This document shows positions 811 to 63,394 of a stretch of 64,000 nt of DNA, piece after piece; the stretch's first letter is position 1, and each line of letters opens with the position of its first letter. Source of the DNA: Scytonema millei VB511283 (GTDB lineage Bacteria; Cyanobacteriota; Cyanobacteriia; Cyanobacteriales; Chroococcidiopsidaceae); the NCBI RefSeq assembly GCF_000817735.3, contig NZ_JTJC03000002.1, positions 62,001-126,000 of the forward strand, read 5' to 3'. The translations under genes and the position numbers were made by a program. The notes under the pieces were generated by a model that did no database searches, was not told the origin of the DNA, and saw only the letters and a list, made by a program, of their open reading frames with translations.

Positions 811-841
811 ATTTTAGATTTTAGATTTTAGATTTTAGATT
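811..841. repeat. Heptad array (ATTTTAG)n
   Basis: About four tandem copies of ATTTTAG (period 7) lie directly upstream of the clpB start. The rest of the 306-bp spacer up to 1109 holds GAGCGAG-like heptads, two GGAATTC units, a CTCCCCC/CTTGTCC-rich stretch and no gene. Confidence 0.85.
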
Positions 842-1109
842 GGCGATGTGAGATTAAAAAGAAAATACCACCTGGTGACAGTGGTGCGATCGCTATTAGC
901 CTATCCTATTTTGAAGGGGTTAGGAGCGAGGAGCGAGGGAAAGAGGGGGCGTAGGGTGTAGGGTGTGGAGAGAATTCGGAATTCGGAATTAATTGTGACT
1001 TGCGAATGCGCGACTTGCGACTTGTCTTGCTCCCCCTTCTTCCCCCTCTCCCTTGTCTCCCTTGTCCCCCGTGTCTTCCCCCTCTCCCCTGTCCGACGTA
1101 TACCTCAGC

Positions 1110-1535
1110 CTACTGTGACACTAACTCCTTCTGAGGAGTAGCAGATTCTCTAGAACTGAGTTGGATCAACTCTACTTTGTAGCCGTCGGGGTCTTCAACA
1201 AAAGCGATAACTGTAGAACCGTGCTTCATTGGTCCTGGTTCTCGTACTACTTTACCGCCACGGGCTTTAATTTCTTCACAAGTGCCGTAAATGTCATCAA
1301 CGCCGATCGCGATATGACCGTAAGCATCACCTAAGTTGTATTTCTCCGTGTCCCAATTGTAGGTGAGTTCGAGAACGGTGTGGTCTGCCTCATCACCATA
1401 GCCTACAAAAGCCAGGGTAAACTTACCACCTGGATAGTCTTTCTGGCGCAGCAACTTCATGCCCAAAAGTTCGCAGTAAAACTTGAGAGATGCTTCCAAG
1501 TTACCGACGCGAAGCATTGTGTGTAGTAATCGCAT
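1110..1535 (-). CDS. gloA: Lactoylglutathione lyase (glyoxalase I)
   Basis: Glyoxalase I isomerises the hemithioacetal of methylglyoxal and glutathione to S-lactoylglutathione in the cytosol. The 141-residue protein has the expected βαβββ duplicated fold. The four metal ligands are visible: His5 ([10 protein letters not shown]), Glu56 (VLELTYN), His74 (AYGHIAIGV) and Glu122 (YKVELIQ). The length suits a bacterial Ni-type enzyme; the C-terminal ~15 residues after RES are an unconserved tail. The gene is monocistronic, transcribed away from eno, and flanked on both sides by heptad repeats. No regulatory site was recognised. Confidence 0.95.
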
Positions 1536-1591
1536 TAAGTGACTCCAAATTTCAGCATCGATCTCTATTCTAGGCAGTAGGGAGCAGTGAC

Positions 1592-1617
1592 CAGTTATCA
1601 GTTATCAGTTATCAGTT
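1592..1617. repeat. Heptad array (CAGTTAT)n
   Basis: Tandem CAGTTAT units occur in the gloA-eno spacer (1536-1906). The same spacer also holds ACCAACA, TGACCAA and GAGTAGT heptads, each in its own short tandem run. No gene is present in the spacer. Confidence 0.85.
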
Positions 1618-1822
1618 AACCAACAACCAACAACCGTCAACTGTTAACCGTCAACCAACAACAAATGACCAATGACCAATGACAACCAATTTCGTGTTGA
1701 ATGATCCTTAACATCGTACCCATCAGCCTGTAAAATTCCTATCCTGACTCAAATGAAGTGATTGGTGAGTAGTGAGTAGTGAGTAGAACCAGTGAAGAGT
1801 GACTTAGTGACAAGAATTGAGT

Positions 1823-1890
1823 CCAGCCACTAGCCACCAGCCACTAGCCACTGACAACTGATAACTGACAACTGATAACTGATAACTGAA
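1823..1890. repeat. Mixed heptad array immediately upstream of eno
   Basis: CACTAGC-type heptads pass into AACTGAT-type heptads (ACTGACA/ACTGATA variants). The array ends about 17 nt before the enolase ATG, just upstream of its GGAG ribosome-binding site, so it must form much of the eno 5' leader if transcription starts upstream of it. Confidence 0.85.
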
Positions 1891-1906
1891 AAAGGAGCTA
1901 CGCAGC

Positions 1907-3196
1907 ATGATCGATACAATAGACAGCGCTATAGACAACATTATTGCTAGAGAAATTCTCGATTCGCGGGGTCGCCCTACTGTTGAGGCGGAAGTACATT
2001 TAATTGGGGGAGTGGTGGGACTCGCCCAGGTTCCCAGTGGGGCTTCTACAGGTACTTTTGAGGCGCACGAACTTCGAGATGACGACAAGAGCCGTTATGG
2101 GGGTAAAGGTGTACTCAAGGCGGTGGAAAATGTCAATTCGGCGATCGCCCCACAACTATCTCAAATGGATGTCTTGAACCAAGAAGCCCTCGATCGAGCC
2201 ATGATTGCTCTAGATGGCTCTCCAAATAAAGCCAAGTTGGGAGCAAATGCGATTTTATCCGTGTCTTTGGCGGCGGCGAAGGCAGGAGCGGAGTTACTTG
2301 GAATTCCTTTGTATCGCTATCTGGGGGGACCTTTAGCAAACGTGCTACCCGTACCGTTGATGAACGTGATCAATGGTGGCGCTCACGCAGCAAATAATAT
2401 CGATTTTCAAGAATTTATGATCGTTCCGGTTGGTGCGTCTTCATTTCGAGAGGCGTTACGCTGGGGGGCGGAAGTTTTTGCCGCTTTGAGTAAGGTGCTG
2501 GACGATAAAGGATTGCTCACTGGTGTGGGCGATGAAGGCGGTTTTGCGCCCAATTTGGAGTCAAATCAGGTAGCTCTAGAAATACTGATGAGCGCGATCG
2601 CCAAAGCTGGATATAAACCTGGGGAGGAAGTCGCATTAGCCTTAGACGTGGCTGCCAGCGAGTTTTACAAAGACGGGCAGTATGTCTATGACGGCGCAGC
2701 TCATGCACCCACTGAGTTTATCGAGTATTTGGCTAAACTGGTCGGTGAATACCCAATTGTCTCAATTGAAGATGGGTTACATGAGGAAGATTGGCAGCAC
2801 TGGCAGCTGTTAACTGAAAAAATTGGCGATCGCGTTCAACTTGTCGGCGACGATCTCTTTGTGACTAATGCCACCCGCCTCCAAAAAGGGATCGAAACCA
2901 AAGCAGGAAATGCCATCTTGATCAAGCTGAATCAAATTGGTTCGCTGACAGAAACTTTAGAAACCATCGATCTAGCTACCCGTAACGGTTTTCGCTCGAT
3001 TATCAGCCATCGTTCGGGAGAAACAGAAGACACGACGATCGCTGACTTAGCTGTAGCAACACGCGCAGGTCAGATTAAAACTGGTTCTCTCTGTCGCAGC
3101 GAACGGGTAGCAAAATATAATCGCCTATTGCGCATTGAAGACGAGTTAGGCGATCGCGCTGTTTATGCTGGAACTGTGAAGATGGGACCGAAGTAG
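1907..3196 (+). CDS. eno: Enolase
   Basis: Phosphopyruvate hydratase of glycolysis (2-phosphoglycerate to phosphoenolpyruvate), cytosolic, 429 residues, full length. Visible family marks are [13 protein letters not shown] at the N-terminus, the active-site loop SGASTG, the Mg ligand regions VSIEDGLHE and VGDDLFVTN, the catalytic lysine in [10 protein letters not shown], and the signature [10 protein letters not shown] near the C-terminus. An AAAGGAG ribosome-binding site sits 11 nt before the ATG, with heptad repeats directly upstream. The gene converges on argC, and a 43-nt perfect inverted repeat separates them. Confidence 0.98.
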
Positions 3197-3201
3197 ATAT
3201 T

Positions 3202-61972: not shown

Positions 61973-62383
61973 ATGCTGATGTTATCTTGCGAACCTTCCA
62001 TTGTCAGAGTCTTGGTTGTAGACGATCACGAACTTACTCGTCTCACTCTGAAGCTAGCGATCGCTCACCAGGAAAATTTAGAACTAGTAGGATTAGCCAG
62101 TAACGGCAAAGAAGCTATAGAAATGACGCAGCGCTTTCATCCAGATGCGGTTGTGCTTGACTTGCAAATGCCAGTTATGGATGGTTGGAGTGCCGCTGCC
62201 AAGATTAAAGATATGCAGCCAGAGACTCAAATTATTGCCTATTCTTCTGTAGAAGATCCAAAACTTCACGATCGTCAAGCAATTGCCTGCTTTGATGCAG
62301 TTTGTAGGAAAGATATTGCCACTCCAGAATTGATGAATATTATTAAAGAATTAAAACAACAACAAGAAATAAATCGCTCGTAA
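61973..62383 (+). CDS. Stand-alone receiver-domain response regulator
   Basis: 136 residues, a single receiver domain close to the NarL/FixJ type: acidic pair VLVVDDHELTRL, phosphoacceptor Asp63 (AVVLDLQMPVMDG), switch Ser in IIAYSSVEDPK, and Lys in VCRKDIATPEL. There is no output domain, so it may act through protein contact. Monocistronic with its own terminator at 62431. Its kinase is not identified. Confidence 0.9.
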   Translation: MLMLSCEPSIVRVLVVDDHELTRLTLKLAIAHQENLELVGLASNGKEAIEMTQRFHPDAVVLDLQMPVMDGWSAAAKIKDMQPETQIIAYSSVEDPKLHDRQAIACFDAVCRKDIATPELMNIIKELKQQQEINRS

Positions 62384-62430
62384 ACAATGGTTTGAACAAG
62401 ATGAGTTCGTAGTGGGCAATACGATTTGTT

Positions 62431-62474
62431 AGCACTGGAAAGCGATTCTAGAAATCGGCTTCCGGTGCTTTTCC
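62431..62474 (+). terminator. Intrinsic terminator after the receiver gene
   Basis: AGCACTGGAA pairs with TTCCGGTGCT (one G·U), with an inner pair AGCGATT/AATCGGCT, followed by TTTTCCTTT. It lies between two convergent genes. Built from unique sequence, not heptads. Confidence 0.8.
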
Positions 62475-62497
62475 TTTAGAGCGCAGGAAATAATAGA

Positions 62498-62680
62498 TTA
62501 GTTAGTCGCGTTGTCAGGAAAAGTGCGCTTAAATTCATCAAGTAAGTCGTCCATTTCTTCTAAAGCTTGATTGACATCTATTCTTAGCGTGCCTAAGTTA
62601 GGTTGTTCTAACAAGCGCAACAATGATTCGCGTTTTTCTTCAAGTACGACAATTCTTGCTTTCAAAGTTTCAATATCCAT
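62498..62680 (-). CDS. Small coiled-coil hypothetical protein
   Basis: 60 residues from the ATG at 62680 (MDIETLKARIVVLEEKRESL), with AAGGA 7 nt upstream; an ATG at 62725 would add 15 residues upstream of the ribosome-binding site. One helical coiled-coil (KARIVVLEEKRESLLRLLEQ) and an acidic end (ALEEMDDLLDEFKRTFPD). No family assigned. Confidence 0.7.
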   Translation of the reverse strand: MDIETLKARIVVLEEKRESLLRLLEQPNLGTLRIDVNQALEEMDDLLDEFKRTFPDNATN

Positions 62681-62759
62681 CGTTGAGTCCTTGTTTGATT
62701 CTGCCCTTATTGTAGTAGAAATCAAAAGTTAAAAGTCAAAAGTTATAACAGATCGCTGT

Positions 62760-63269
62760 TCACTCCTCACTATTATTGGATTCACCAGATTCTAGTCGTT
62801 TAGCAGTAAAGGCAATTTCTCTAGCTGTCTCACCTATGCTGAGTTTACCCGCAATCTTTTCTGGTTGAATCTGACTAGAAATCGCGATCGCATTTACAAC
62901 TGCTGCTACAGGTCGGCGACAAATTGTCGCTAAAGGAACATTGCCAGTGAACTGCAAGGTGCGATCGCTTAGTTTTCCTGTGAGAGTCGGTCTTTTTTCT
63001 CCAACTCTAGCCTTGTGTGAGCTACTTTCTGCTAATAATAAAGACCCGTTTAAGTAAATACCAGATTGCTGTATGTCTAACACTAAGTTTGATAGCTCTA
63101 GACAATCAGGCAAATTTTGGTCGAGAGACAACAGATAACGTCCTTGAATTGATGGCTGTGCTTTCAGATTAGCCTCCCCGTAGGCAGAAACAACTTTAAA
63201 CAACAGTAAAACCGAACCAATTGCAATACCGTAAAAAGCTAAAGATTTGAGGTTGAAGTGATTTTTCAT
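62760..63269 (-). CDS. Exported or anchored hypothetical protein
   Basis: 169 residues. One N-terminal hydrophobic segment (LAFYGIAIGSVLLLFKVVSA) is a signal or anchor, followed by β-rich sequence: GRYLLSLDQNLPDCLELSNLVLDIQQSGIYLNGSLLL and LTGKLSDRTLQFTGNVP. I recognise no family. It lies 105 bp downstream of the antiporter gene on the same strand, with a heptad array between, so a functional link to the antiporter is possible but unproven. Confidence 0.7.
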   Translation of the reverse strand: MKNHFNLKSLAFYGIAIGSVLLLFKVVSAYGEANLKAQPSIQGRYLLSLDQNLPDCLELSNLVLDIQQSGIYLNGSLLLAESSSHKARVGEKRPTLTGKLSDRTLQFTGNVPLATICRRPVAAVVNAIAISSQIQPEKIAGKLSIGETAREIAFTAKRLESGESNNSEE

Positions 63270-63355
63270 GAACGATGGTAATTGTAATTGGTAATTGGAT
63301 TGTAATTAGTAATTGGGTGGTGCGTGGTGCGTGAATCGCCTCTGGCTCCTGTTCG

Positions 63356-63394
63356 CTGATAACTGATAACTGTTCACTGATAACTGATAACATC
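63356..63394. repeat. Heptad array (AACTGAT)n entering the antiporter gene
   Basis: Five to six ACTGATA/ACTGTTC units. The last two, read on the minus strand, encode the final residues VISYQ and the stop of the antiporter gene. Confidence 0.8.

What the first reader, a model, noticed from the sequence alone, without database searches (positions are those of the whole stretch)
811..63394. Nearly every spacer carries tandem repeats with period exactly 7, but with many different heptamers
Short tandem runs of ATTTTAG, CAGTTAT/AACTGAT, TTGACGG, GGGTGTG, GTAAGTC, GGGAGTC, ACCAACT, AAAAGTC, GGAATTC, CACTAGC, TAGTCAC, GAGCGAG, CTCCCTG, TGACCAA, CACAAGT and CCCTACA all appear in this one window. Each has period 7 while the unit changes between arrays. 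Heptanucleotide STRRs are known from heterocystous cyanobacteria, but the number of distinct units sharing one period length in 64 kb suggests a common generating mechanism blind to sequence and sensitive to length, such as a polymerase or recombinase with a 7-nt step. One array at 8398-8424 has period 8 and is the exception.
Basis: partly seen in the sequence, partly recalled or inferred. Interest (0 to 1): 0.72.

Follow-up and report, generated by a model that had tools for sequence, protein, structure and literature searches.

The report
Convergent heptamer arrays in cyanobacterial spacers
Between its genes this cyanobacterium carries many short DNA repeats seven letters long; they use a limited set of words and nearly always face each other, with the same chemically lopsided strand running inward from both sides, which is a clue to how such repeats are made.

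Summary
The period-7 observation is real and sharp. In 826 kb of this genome, spacers hold 338 exact arrays of period 7, against 4, 8 and 28 of periods 6, 8 and 9. "Nearly every spacer" is overstated: 22 of 37 window spacers of at least 80 bp. "Blind to sequence" is wrong: the arrays use 62 heptamer classes where local origin predicts about 274.

The new result is a polarity rule. Within a spacer, C-poor "R" arrays lie left and the reverse-complement "Y" type right: R-then-Y 103, Y-then-R 5 in this genome; 67 to 4 in 80 loci of other cyanobacteria. It holds between convergent and divergent genes. The two arms almost never carry the same unit and are no more complementary than random pairs, so it is not a hairpin. 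At orthologous sites in species 93-94% identical, arrays persist but often with different words.

Best explanation, partly inferred: DNA synthesis running inward from both flanks, copying words from other arrays. Heptamer repeats, the 7-nt polymerase idea and same-unit convergent pairs in Xanthomonas are in print; I found no report of the mixed-unit polarity in ten searches of an open-access library.

The parts
810..841 (+). GATTTTA array, 4.6 copies
   Evidence: TRF
1592..1618 (+). R-type array CAGTTAT (strand given = C-poor strand)
1618..1683 (-). Y-type arrays AACCAAC and AATGACC with degenerate in-register heptamers between
1684..1764 (.). 81-nt block conserved in G001 (100% of 78 nt) and G002 (97%) that separates two R-Y tracts in one spacer; gives the only Y-then-R neighbour pair of the window
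1765..1786 (+). R-type array GTGAGTA
1839..1889 (-). Y-type arrays AGCCACT and AACTGAT (words change in register)
4548..4585 (+). R-type array TGTGGGG
4651..4668 (-). Y-type array CCCTGCT
7173..7195 (+). R-type array GTTGACG
7217..7236 (-). Y-type array CTCCCTG
8333..8389 (+). R-type arrays TCAGTTA then GGGTGTG
8396..8424 (+). period-8 array TGAATGCG
8433..8566 (-). C-rich arrays on the right side of the same spacer: period 9 GCTCCCTCA and CTTGTCCCC, then period 7 CCCTCAC
9627..9653 (+). R-type array GTAAGTC; GGTAATG-type words at the orthologous place in G001 and G002
9707..9760 (-). Y-type arrays ACTGATA and ACTGATG
11679..11703 (+). R-type array GGGAGTC
11709..11746 (-). Y-type array AACTACC, 5-nt centre; AATTACC words in G001 and G002
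28228..28336 (+). R-type arrays AGGAGCG and GGGTGTG
28432..28565 (-). Y-type arrays CCTCACT and AGCCACT
31092..31111 (+). R-type array TTGTCAT; G001 and G002 carry TTGCAAT at the same place
42501..42526 (-). Y-type array ACTGATA; CTAGTCA type in G002, CTGGTCA type in G001
44659..44672 (+). R-type array GCGAGGA
44709..44728 (-). Y-type array AAAATCT in the spacer before rplA
45502..45534 (+). GAATTCG array between rplA and the L10 leader
46864..46896 (+). R-type array ATCAGTT at the end of the ORF 46469-46864
56505..56525 (+). R-type array CAAGTCA
56533..56597 (-). Y-type arrays ACCCTAC, ACACCCC, TAACTGT
63317..63333 (+). R-type array GTGGTGC
63356..63372 (-). Y-type array CTGATAA

Best explanation
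SHOWN: the arrays are parts of two-armed, convergently oriented intergenic tracts. On each strand the C-poor 'R' strand (G .34, T .31, A .26, C .10; consensus AGTYRNN) runs 5' to 3' from flanking conserved DNA towards the middle of the tract, so the + strand reads R arrays, a short centre, then Y arrays. The words come from a limited dictionary, the two arms use different words, and orthologous tracts keep site and orientation while words are often replaced. INFERRED: the polarity is the signature of DNA synthesis that starts from the 3' ends at the two flanks and runs inward, that is, repeated local break or gap repair. The inward-growing 3' end, itself ending in R-type words, anneals through its AGT-type core to other arrays in the genome and copies some of their heptamers; annealing through a shared core would keep register and orientation while changing the word. 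The two extended ends are then joined without regard to each other, and copy number drifts by slippage. No enzyme is assigned; the factor should be lineage-specific, since sampled cyanobacteria of other orders lack the arrays.
For: Polarity: R-then-Y 112 against Y-then-R 6 in own C2 + G001 + G002; 44 to 1 in held-out own C1; own genome alone 103 to 5; 67 to 4 in 80 named loci of other cyanobacteria; 9 to 0 in 20 stretches of 18 other genomes of the order; 7 to 0 in Calothrix. Orientation by G>C alone: 95 to 5 and 52 to 2. Same in convergent (21 to 0), divergent (35 to 2) and tandem spacers (63 to 2, 37 to 3). Arrays of period 8-11 obey too: 46 to 3. No AGT/ACT polarity in array-free spacers. 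Dictionary: 62 classes against 274 expected; 208 of 223 held-out arrays within it. Turnover with kept site and orientation. In-register degenerate text beside arrays. Composite junctions at several loci.
Against: Ku was found in 0 of 50 genomes, so the joining step lacks its usual bacterial enzyme. Rearrangement junctions are not marked by the tracts: by eye 1 of 8 displayed own-genome junctions carries an R-then-Y pair. No candidate gene tracks array richness: RVT_1 and Y1_Tnp do not. Donor copying is suggested by recurrent junctions, not demonstrated. At gaps over 250 nt the order is weaker, RY 21 to YR 9, becoming 8 to 0 when spacers are cut at ORFs of 60 codons, which may be real or spurious genes. 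Replaced words are somewhat closer to the old ones than random dictionary pairs (3.08 against 3.52 mismatches), so part of the change may be mutation plus homogenisation.
Confidence: 0.4

Rival explanations
1. RNA-level selection: mRNA 3' trailers favour R-type and 5' leaders favour Y-type repeats, which geometrically gives the same polarity. Slippage makes the arrays; selection keeps the orientation.
For: Nearest to a gene 3' end, arrays read R 200 and Y 89 in the gene's direction; nearest a 5' end, Y 228 and R 51. In Beggiatoaceae TAACTGA (Y type) points towards start codons in 147 of 170 sets (PMC4679880 section 7).
Against: It needs two separate rules, one for trailers and one for leaders, because convergent and divergent spacers obey equally. 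In the divergent spacer at window 1536-1906 a conserved block is flanked by Y then R, so a leader there could hold both types.
Confidence: 0.25
2. Replication slippage with a 7-nt footprint of the polymerase (Mrazek 2007), acting on any spacer.
For: Sharp period 7. Copy-number variants with a conserved centre are seen among related Nostoc-type loci L058, L063 and L064.
Against: Does not give the restricted dictionary (62 against 274 classes) nor the polarity. Sampled genomes outside the order show no period-7 excess.
Confidence: 0.15
3. A dispersed mobile element with inverted R and Y ends (MITE- or REPIN-like) that inserts into spacers and then decays.
For: Dispersed composite junctions recur. 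Spacer-level architecture resembles inverted doublets such as REPINs (PMC3116915 abstract).
Against: Arms are not complementary. Orthologous tracts are mostly replaced rather than cleanly present or absent: of 135 variable segments with an array, 19 face 6 nt or less, several of these being single-base or 7-nt differences. Y1_Tnp is present in 25 of 26 genomes, rich and poor alike.
Confidence: 0.12
4. Foldback or hairpin-forming inverted repeats (cruciform, terminator).
For: R and Y share complementary cores (AGTYR with YRACT). A few perfect inverted tracts exist, for example a 13-bp stem at own C2 (window-relative 200965).
Against: Same unit in both arms in 3 of 156 pairs; duplex energy -7.75 against -8.51 (sd 0.57) for swapped partners; junction folding -11.7 against -13.1 (sd 0.53) for swapped halves.
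Confidence: 0.05

Closest known systems
Heptanucleotide STRR / long simple sequence repeats of cyanobacteria and other bacteria (Mazel 1990, Mrazek 2007: recalled and as cited in PMC4679880 and PMC4692102)
   Same: Intergenic tandem heptamers, several units, period 7 predominant.
   Different: Here a closed dictionary and a convergent two-armed architecture are shown; the footprint idea alone does not predict them.
Convergent GGGAATC repeat pairs of Xanthomonas (Rehm 2015, PMC4692102 sections 10, 11, 14 read)
   Same: Heptamer arrays in convergent orientation: 70 and 75 cases in two genomes; arrays close to the upstream ORF; pair type usually kept between species.
   Different: There both arms have one unit and were read as inverted repeats; in Nostoc few pairs were found with one unit. 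Here the arms carry different units.
TAACTGA repeats of Beggiatoaceae and cyanobacteria (MacGregor 2015, PMC4679880 abstract, sections 3, 7, 10 read)
   Same: TAACTGA is the commonest unit here and is Y-type towards genes.
   Different: There mostly one unit before start codons; here many units, both gene ends. XisH, noted there as nearly always co-occurring in cyanobacteria, has no match in this genome.
REPINs / BIMEs (PMC3116915 abstract and section 13 read)
   Same: Dispersed intergenic doublets in inverted orientation with a short centre.
   Different: REP arms are complementary palindromes tied to RAYT transposases; these arms are not complementary.
Head-to-head interstitial telomeric sequences (PMC6410037, passages read)
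   Same: Repeat strands of the same lopsided composition running 5' to 3' towards a joint from both sides.
   Different: One unit made by telomerase in eukaryotes; here many units in a bacterium and no such enzyme shown.

Membership tests
Heptanucleotide simple sequence repeats (STRR/LSSR) | Tandem exact heptamers, intergenic, far above chance | tested here: met
Universal polymerase-footprint slippage repeats | Period-7 excess in genomes generally | tested here: not met
   4 runs in 20 same-class genomes outside the order, no excess over periods 5-13
Universal polymerase-footprint slippage repeats | Units independent of sequence | tested here: not met
   62 classes observed, 274 +/- 7 expected
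Xanthomonas-type convergent repeat pairs | Convergent orientation of neighbouring arrays | tested here: met
   RY 103, YR 5
Xanthomonas-type convergent repeat pairs | Same unit in both arms (inverted repeat) | tested here: not met
   3 of 156 pairs
REPIN/BIME | Complementary palindromic arms forming hairpins | tested here: not met
MITE or other insertion element | Precise empty sites in relatives | tested here: inconclusive
   19 of 135 array-bearing variable segments face 6 nt or less, several of them trivial; target duplications were not scored
Telomere-type end healing and fusion | C-poor repeat strand inward on both sides of a joint | tested here: met
Telomere-type end healing and fusion | A repeat-adding enzyme or an end-joining system | tested here: inconclusive
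   Ku 0 of 50 genomes; RVT_1 present in 21 of 26 but not tracking richness

The most novel reading that the evidence does not exclude
The tracts are scars of a bacterial, telomere-like healing system: breaks in spacers have both 3' ends extended with C-poor heptamers taken from a genome-wide dictionary, by a repeat-adding polymerase or by copying other arrays, and the two extended ends are then fused head to head without Ku.
Probability: 0.12. Interest if true: 0.9.

Novelty: new variant of a known kind. Interest (0 to 1): 0.6.

Why it matters
Heptamer repeats in cyanobacteria have been known for decades (recalled) without an agreed origin. A nearly exceptionless polarity between arrays of unrelated units is a strong constraint on that origin. 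It is not explained by plain slippage or hairpin selection, and it points to a process that tells the inside of a spacer from its outside but ignores strand and transcription direction. It makes the question testable: a candidate enzyme or repair route must lay down C-poor heptamers inward from both sides and should be missing or inactive in cyanobacteria without arrays.

Tried and rejected
Sequence-blind origin: rejected by the restricted dictionary. A universal AGT-type grammar: weak; words of other genera that this genus does not share fit the pattern little better than background (32% against 24%; p = 0.0015 on likelihood), so the shared pattern may partly be common descent of words. Foldback or hairpin: rejected. 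General left-right composition of spacers: array-free spacers show none (AGT index 0.508 and 0.517; GC skew), though array-bearing spacers keep some G skew when exact arrays are masked (GGG index 0.603), as expected from degenerate text. Leader-only selection such as Shine-Dalgarno decoys: convergent spacers obey too. Break-linked rearrangements: 10 synteny breaks listed, 8 own junctions displayed, 1 with an R-then-Y pair. Junction motif: only modest, AATTAA 14 against 2.8 expected in 82 short-centre tracts. XisH, RVT_1, Y1_Tnp: no relation to array richness seen. Growth direction from flank decay: outer flanks slightly more similar than inner (0.543 against 0.510), confounded by the nearness of the centre. 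Fixed word order along an arm: 53 of 64 events in the majority direction, 45 +/- 2.3 expected; suggestive. Position in the spacer alone predicts orientation less well: 288 of 411.

Limits: tracts of own, G001 and G002 are partly orthologous, so pooled counts are not independent; the own-genome count is 103 to 5. Gene borders are mechanical ORFs. The 80 named loci all surround rplA and include close relatives; 53 of their 67 RY pairs are distinct unit combinations. Units with orientation score below 1 were dropped from the motif-based counts, and units with equal G and C from the G>C counts.
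Full report
WHAT WAS CHECKED. TRF finds the reported heptamer arrays. In the window, exact lag-7 runs of at least 10 number 39, of which 37 are intergenic; no other lag from 2 to 30 exceeds 8. Intergenic identity peaks at lag 7 (0.342) between 0.278 (lag 6) and 0.264 (lag 8); ORFs show nothing. The window is contig C2 62001-126000 of a 5.97-Mb genome. The genus is probably Chroococcidiopsis; that is inference, because the same-genus genome G002 has a 6,315,792-bp contig, which I recall as the chromosome size of C. 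thermalis PCC 7203. In 826 kb of the own genome (C1 1-400000, C2 1-426000), spacers hold 4, 338, 8, 28 and 3 arrays of period 6, 7, 8, 9 and 10. An exact array is in 22 of 37 window spacers of at least 80 bp, not nearly all.

NOT SEQUENCE-BLIND. The 338 arrays use 62 of 1170 possible heptamer classes; if each array had amplified a local heptamer, 274 +/- 7 would be expected. The top class, that of TAACTGA, is 19.8%; the effective number is 16 to 29. 208 of 223 arrays in the held-out C1 stretch belong to the 74-class list from C2, G001 and G002. 30 of 98 classes seen in 80 named loci of other cyanobacteria are in that list, against 6.2 expected if all classes were equally likely. The 74 classes share a degenerate pattern, NNYRACT on one strand. 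Unshared words of other genera fit it only slightly better than background, so part of the pattern may be descent.

POLARITY. I call the AGTYRNN-like orientation R and its reverse complement Y. Orientation was assigned by a strand-symmetric motif model that knows nothing of position. Neighbouring arrays in one spacer (gap up to 250 nt) in own C2 + G001 + G002 were RY 112, RR 87, YY 67, YR 6; in 2000 shuffles of labels within spacers the RY-YR excess never passed 35, against 108 observed. Held-out own C1 gave 44 to 1; the own genome alone 103 to 5; eighty named loci from Nostoc, Anabaena, Fischerella, Scytonema and others 67 to 4; twenty stretches from 18 other genomes of the order 9 to 0; 100 kb of Calothrix 7 to 0. 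Defining R simply as more G than C gives 95 to 5 and 52 to 2. Pairs with at least one array of period 8-11 give 46 to 3, so polarity is not tied to period 7. It holds in convergent (21 to 0), divergent (35 to 2) and both tandem settings (63 to 2 and 37 to 3). Array-free spacers show no AGT/ACT left-right bias. At gaps over 250 nt the order is weaker, 21 to 9, and becomes 8 to 0 when spacers are cut at ORFs of 60 codons.

EXCEPTIONS. Eleven Y-then-R cases at any distance were listed. Two abut directly. Three lie across a block conserved in relatives, two of these being the same site in two species. Four have gaps of 319 nt or more holding ORFs of at least 30 codons. One has a 102-nt gap with a 31-codon ORF, and one a 90-nt gap with nothing found. 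For the five C1 cases conservation could not be tested, because the matching stretches of G001 and G002 were not fetched. The rule may therefore be: each variable stretch between conserved blocks has R on its left and Y on its right.

NOT A HAIRPIN. The two arms carry the same class in 3 of 156 RY pairs. Duplex energy is no better than with swapped partners (-7.75 against -8.51, sd 0.57; 115 tracts), and folding around the junction is weaker than with swapped halves (-11.7 against -13.1, sd 0.53; 114 tracts).

TURNOVER. Identity among own, G001 and G002 is 93-94.5% in aligned stretches, with synteny over the window. Own and G002 both carry arrays in 44 of 95 orthologous spacers (25.2 expected by independence), own and G001 in 37 of 92 (22.3 expected); 22 of 44 and 21 of 37 share any unit class. 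Of 135 variable segments with an array on at least one side, 59 have arrays on both sides with no shared unit, 52 face other sequence, 19 face 6 nt or less (several of these trivial), and 5 share a unit. Orthologous different words differ at a mean of 3.1 of 7 positions, against 3.5 for random pairs; 5 of 59 differ by one. Examples: window 31092 TTGTCAT against TTGCAAT; 42501 ACTGATA against CTAGTCA and CTGGTCA types. Orientation is mostly kept: 6 of 108 species-pair comparisons have R only in one and Y only in the other. Flanking heptamers match the array in register at 0.54 and 0.51, so exact arrays are cores of longer degenerate text. Some composite junctions recur at several loci.

DISTRIBUTION. 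In 20 genomes of the same class outside the order (about 0.8 Mb), periods 5 to 13 have 4, 5, 4, 4, 14, 4, 10, 22 and 10 runs; period 7 is the third figure. In the own family, sampled genera have 0 to 7 period-7 arrays per stretch of 12 to 20 kb. The pattern TAACTGATAACTGATAA occurs in 4 of 26 genomes: the three of the own genus, and 7 places in one other.

MECHANISM. A rule that is symmetric under strand exchange and indifferent to transcription direction, but tells the outside of a tract from its inside, is what 3'-primed synthesis from both flanks would leave. It is also the polarity of two telomeric ends joined head to head (interstitial telomeric sequences, PMC6410037, passages read). A shared AGT core would let one word prime on another and keep register and orientation while changing the word. 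These steps are inferred. Against them: Ku in 0 of 50 genomes, breakpoints not marked, and no enzyme assigned. The main rival is selection at RNA level, trailers R and leaders Y; it agrees with the Beggiatoaceae table but needs two separate rules.

PRIOR WORK. Heptanucleotide dominance and the polymerase-footprint idea are from Mrazek et al. 2007, seen only as cited in PMC4679880 section 3 and PMC4692102 passages. Rehm et al. (PMC4692102 sections 10, 11, 14) reported 70 and 75 convergent same-unit pairs in two Xanthomonas and few pairs in Nostoc. Elhai 2008 is not held; from memory it places small dispersed repeats within heptamer repeats, and I cannot say whether it mentions orientation. In ten library searches no title or abstract listed reports the mixed-unit polarity; most subscription papers are outside that library.

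Noticed in passing
window 24944-25025: A palindromic GTAGGGGCGGGTTTA...AACCCGCCCGTAC-type element interrupts an AGGGAGT array here and in G002; in G001 the array runs on without it, which looks like an insertion into a heptamer array.
   Followed up: partly
window 1684-1764: An 81-nt non-coding block upstream of the enolase gene is 97-100% conserved in G001 and G002 while the arrays on both sides differ.
   Followed up: partly
G061 (genome of L035, Calothrix): The backwards control pattern, an AATAGTC-type array, matches 164 and 176 times in this genome and not in the other 25 searched, suggesting genus-specific favourite words; but in a 100-kb sample AATAGTC had only 2 of 41 arrays.
   Followed up: partly
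own genome G000: No XisH match (PF08814), although 45 of 50 searched genomes have one; this goes against the published co-occurrence of XisH/XisI with TAACTGA repeats. XisI was not searched.
   Followed up: partly
own C2 about 361142 (record coordinate 423142): A 31-codon ORF in the 102-nt gap between a Y and an R array may be a real small membrane-protein gene; not tested. Coordinate 361142 is relative to the window start.
   Followed up: no
G034: 78 reverse-transcriptase (RVT_1) matches in a 3.8-Mb genome of the same order, with no period-7 arrays in a 20-kb sample.
   Followed up: no
window 35599-40331: Two neighbouring genes with metallo-beta-lactamase-like, flavodoxin and flavin-reductase domains, as in flavodiiron proteins (the name is recalled).
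   Followed up: no
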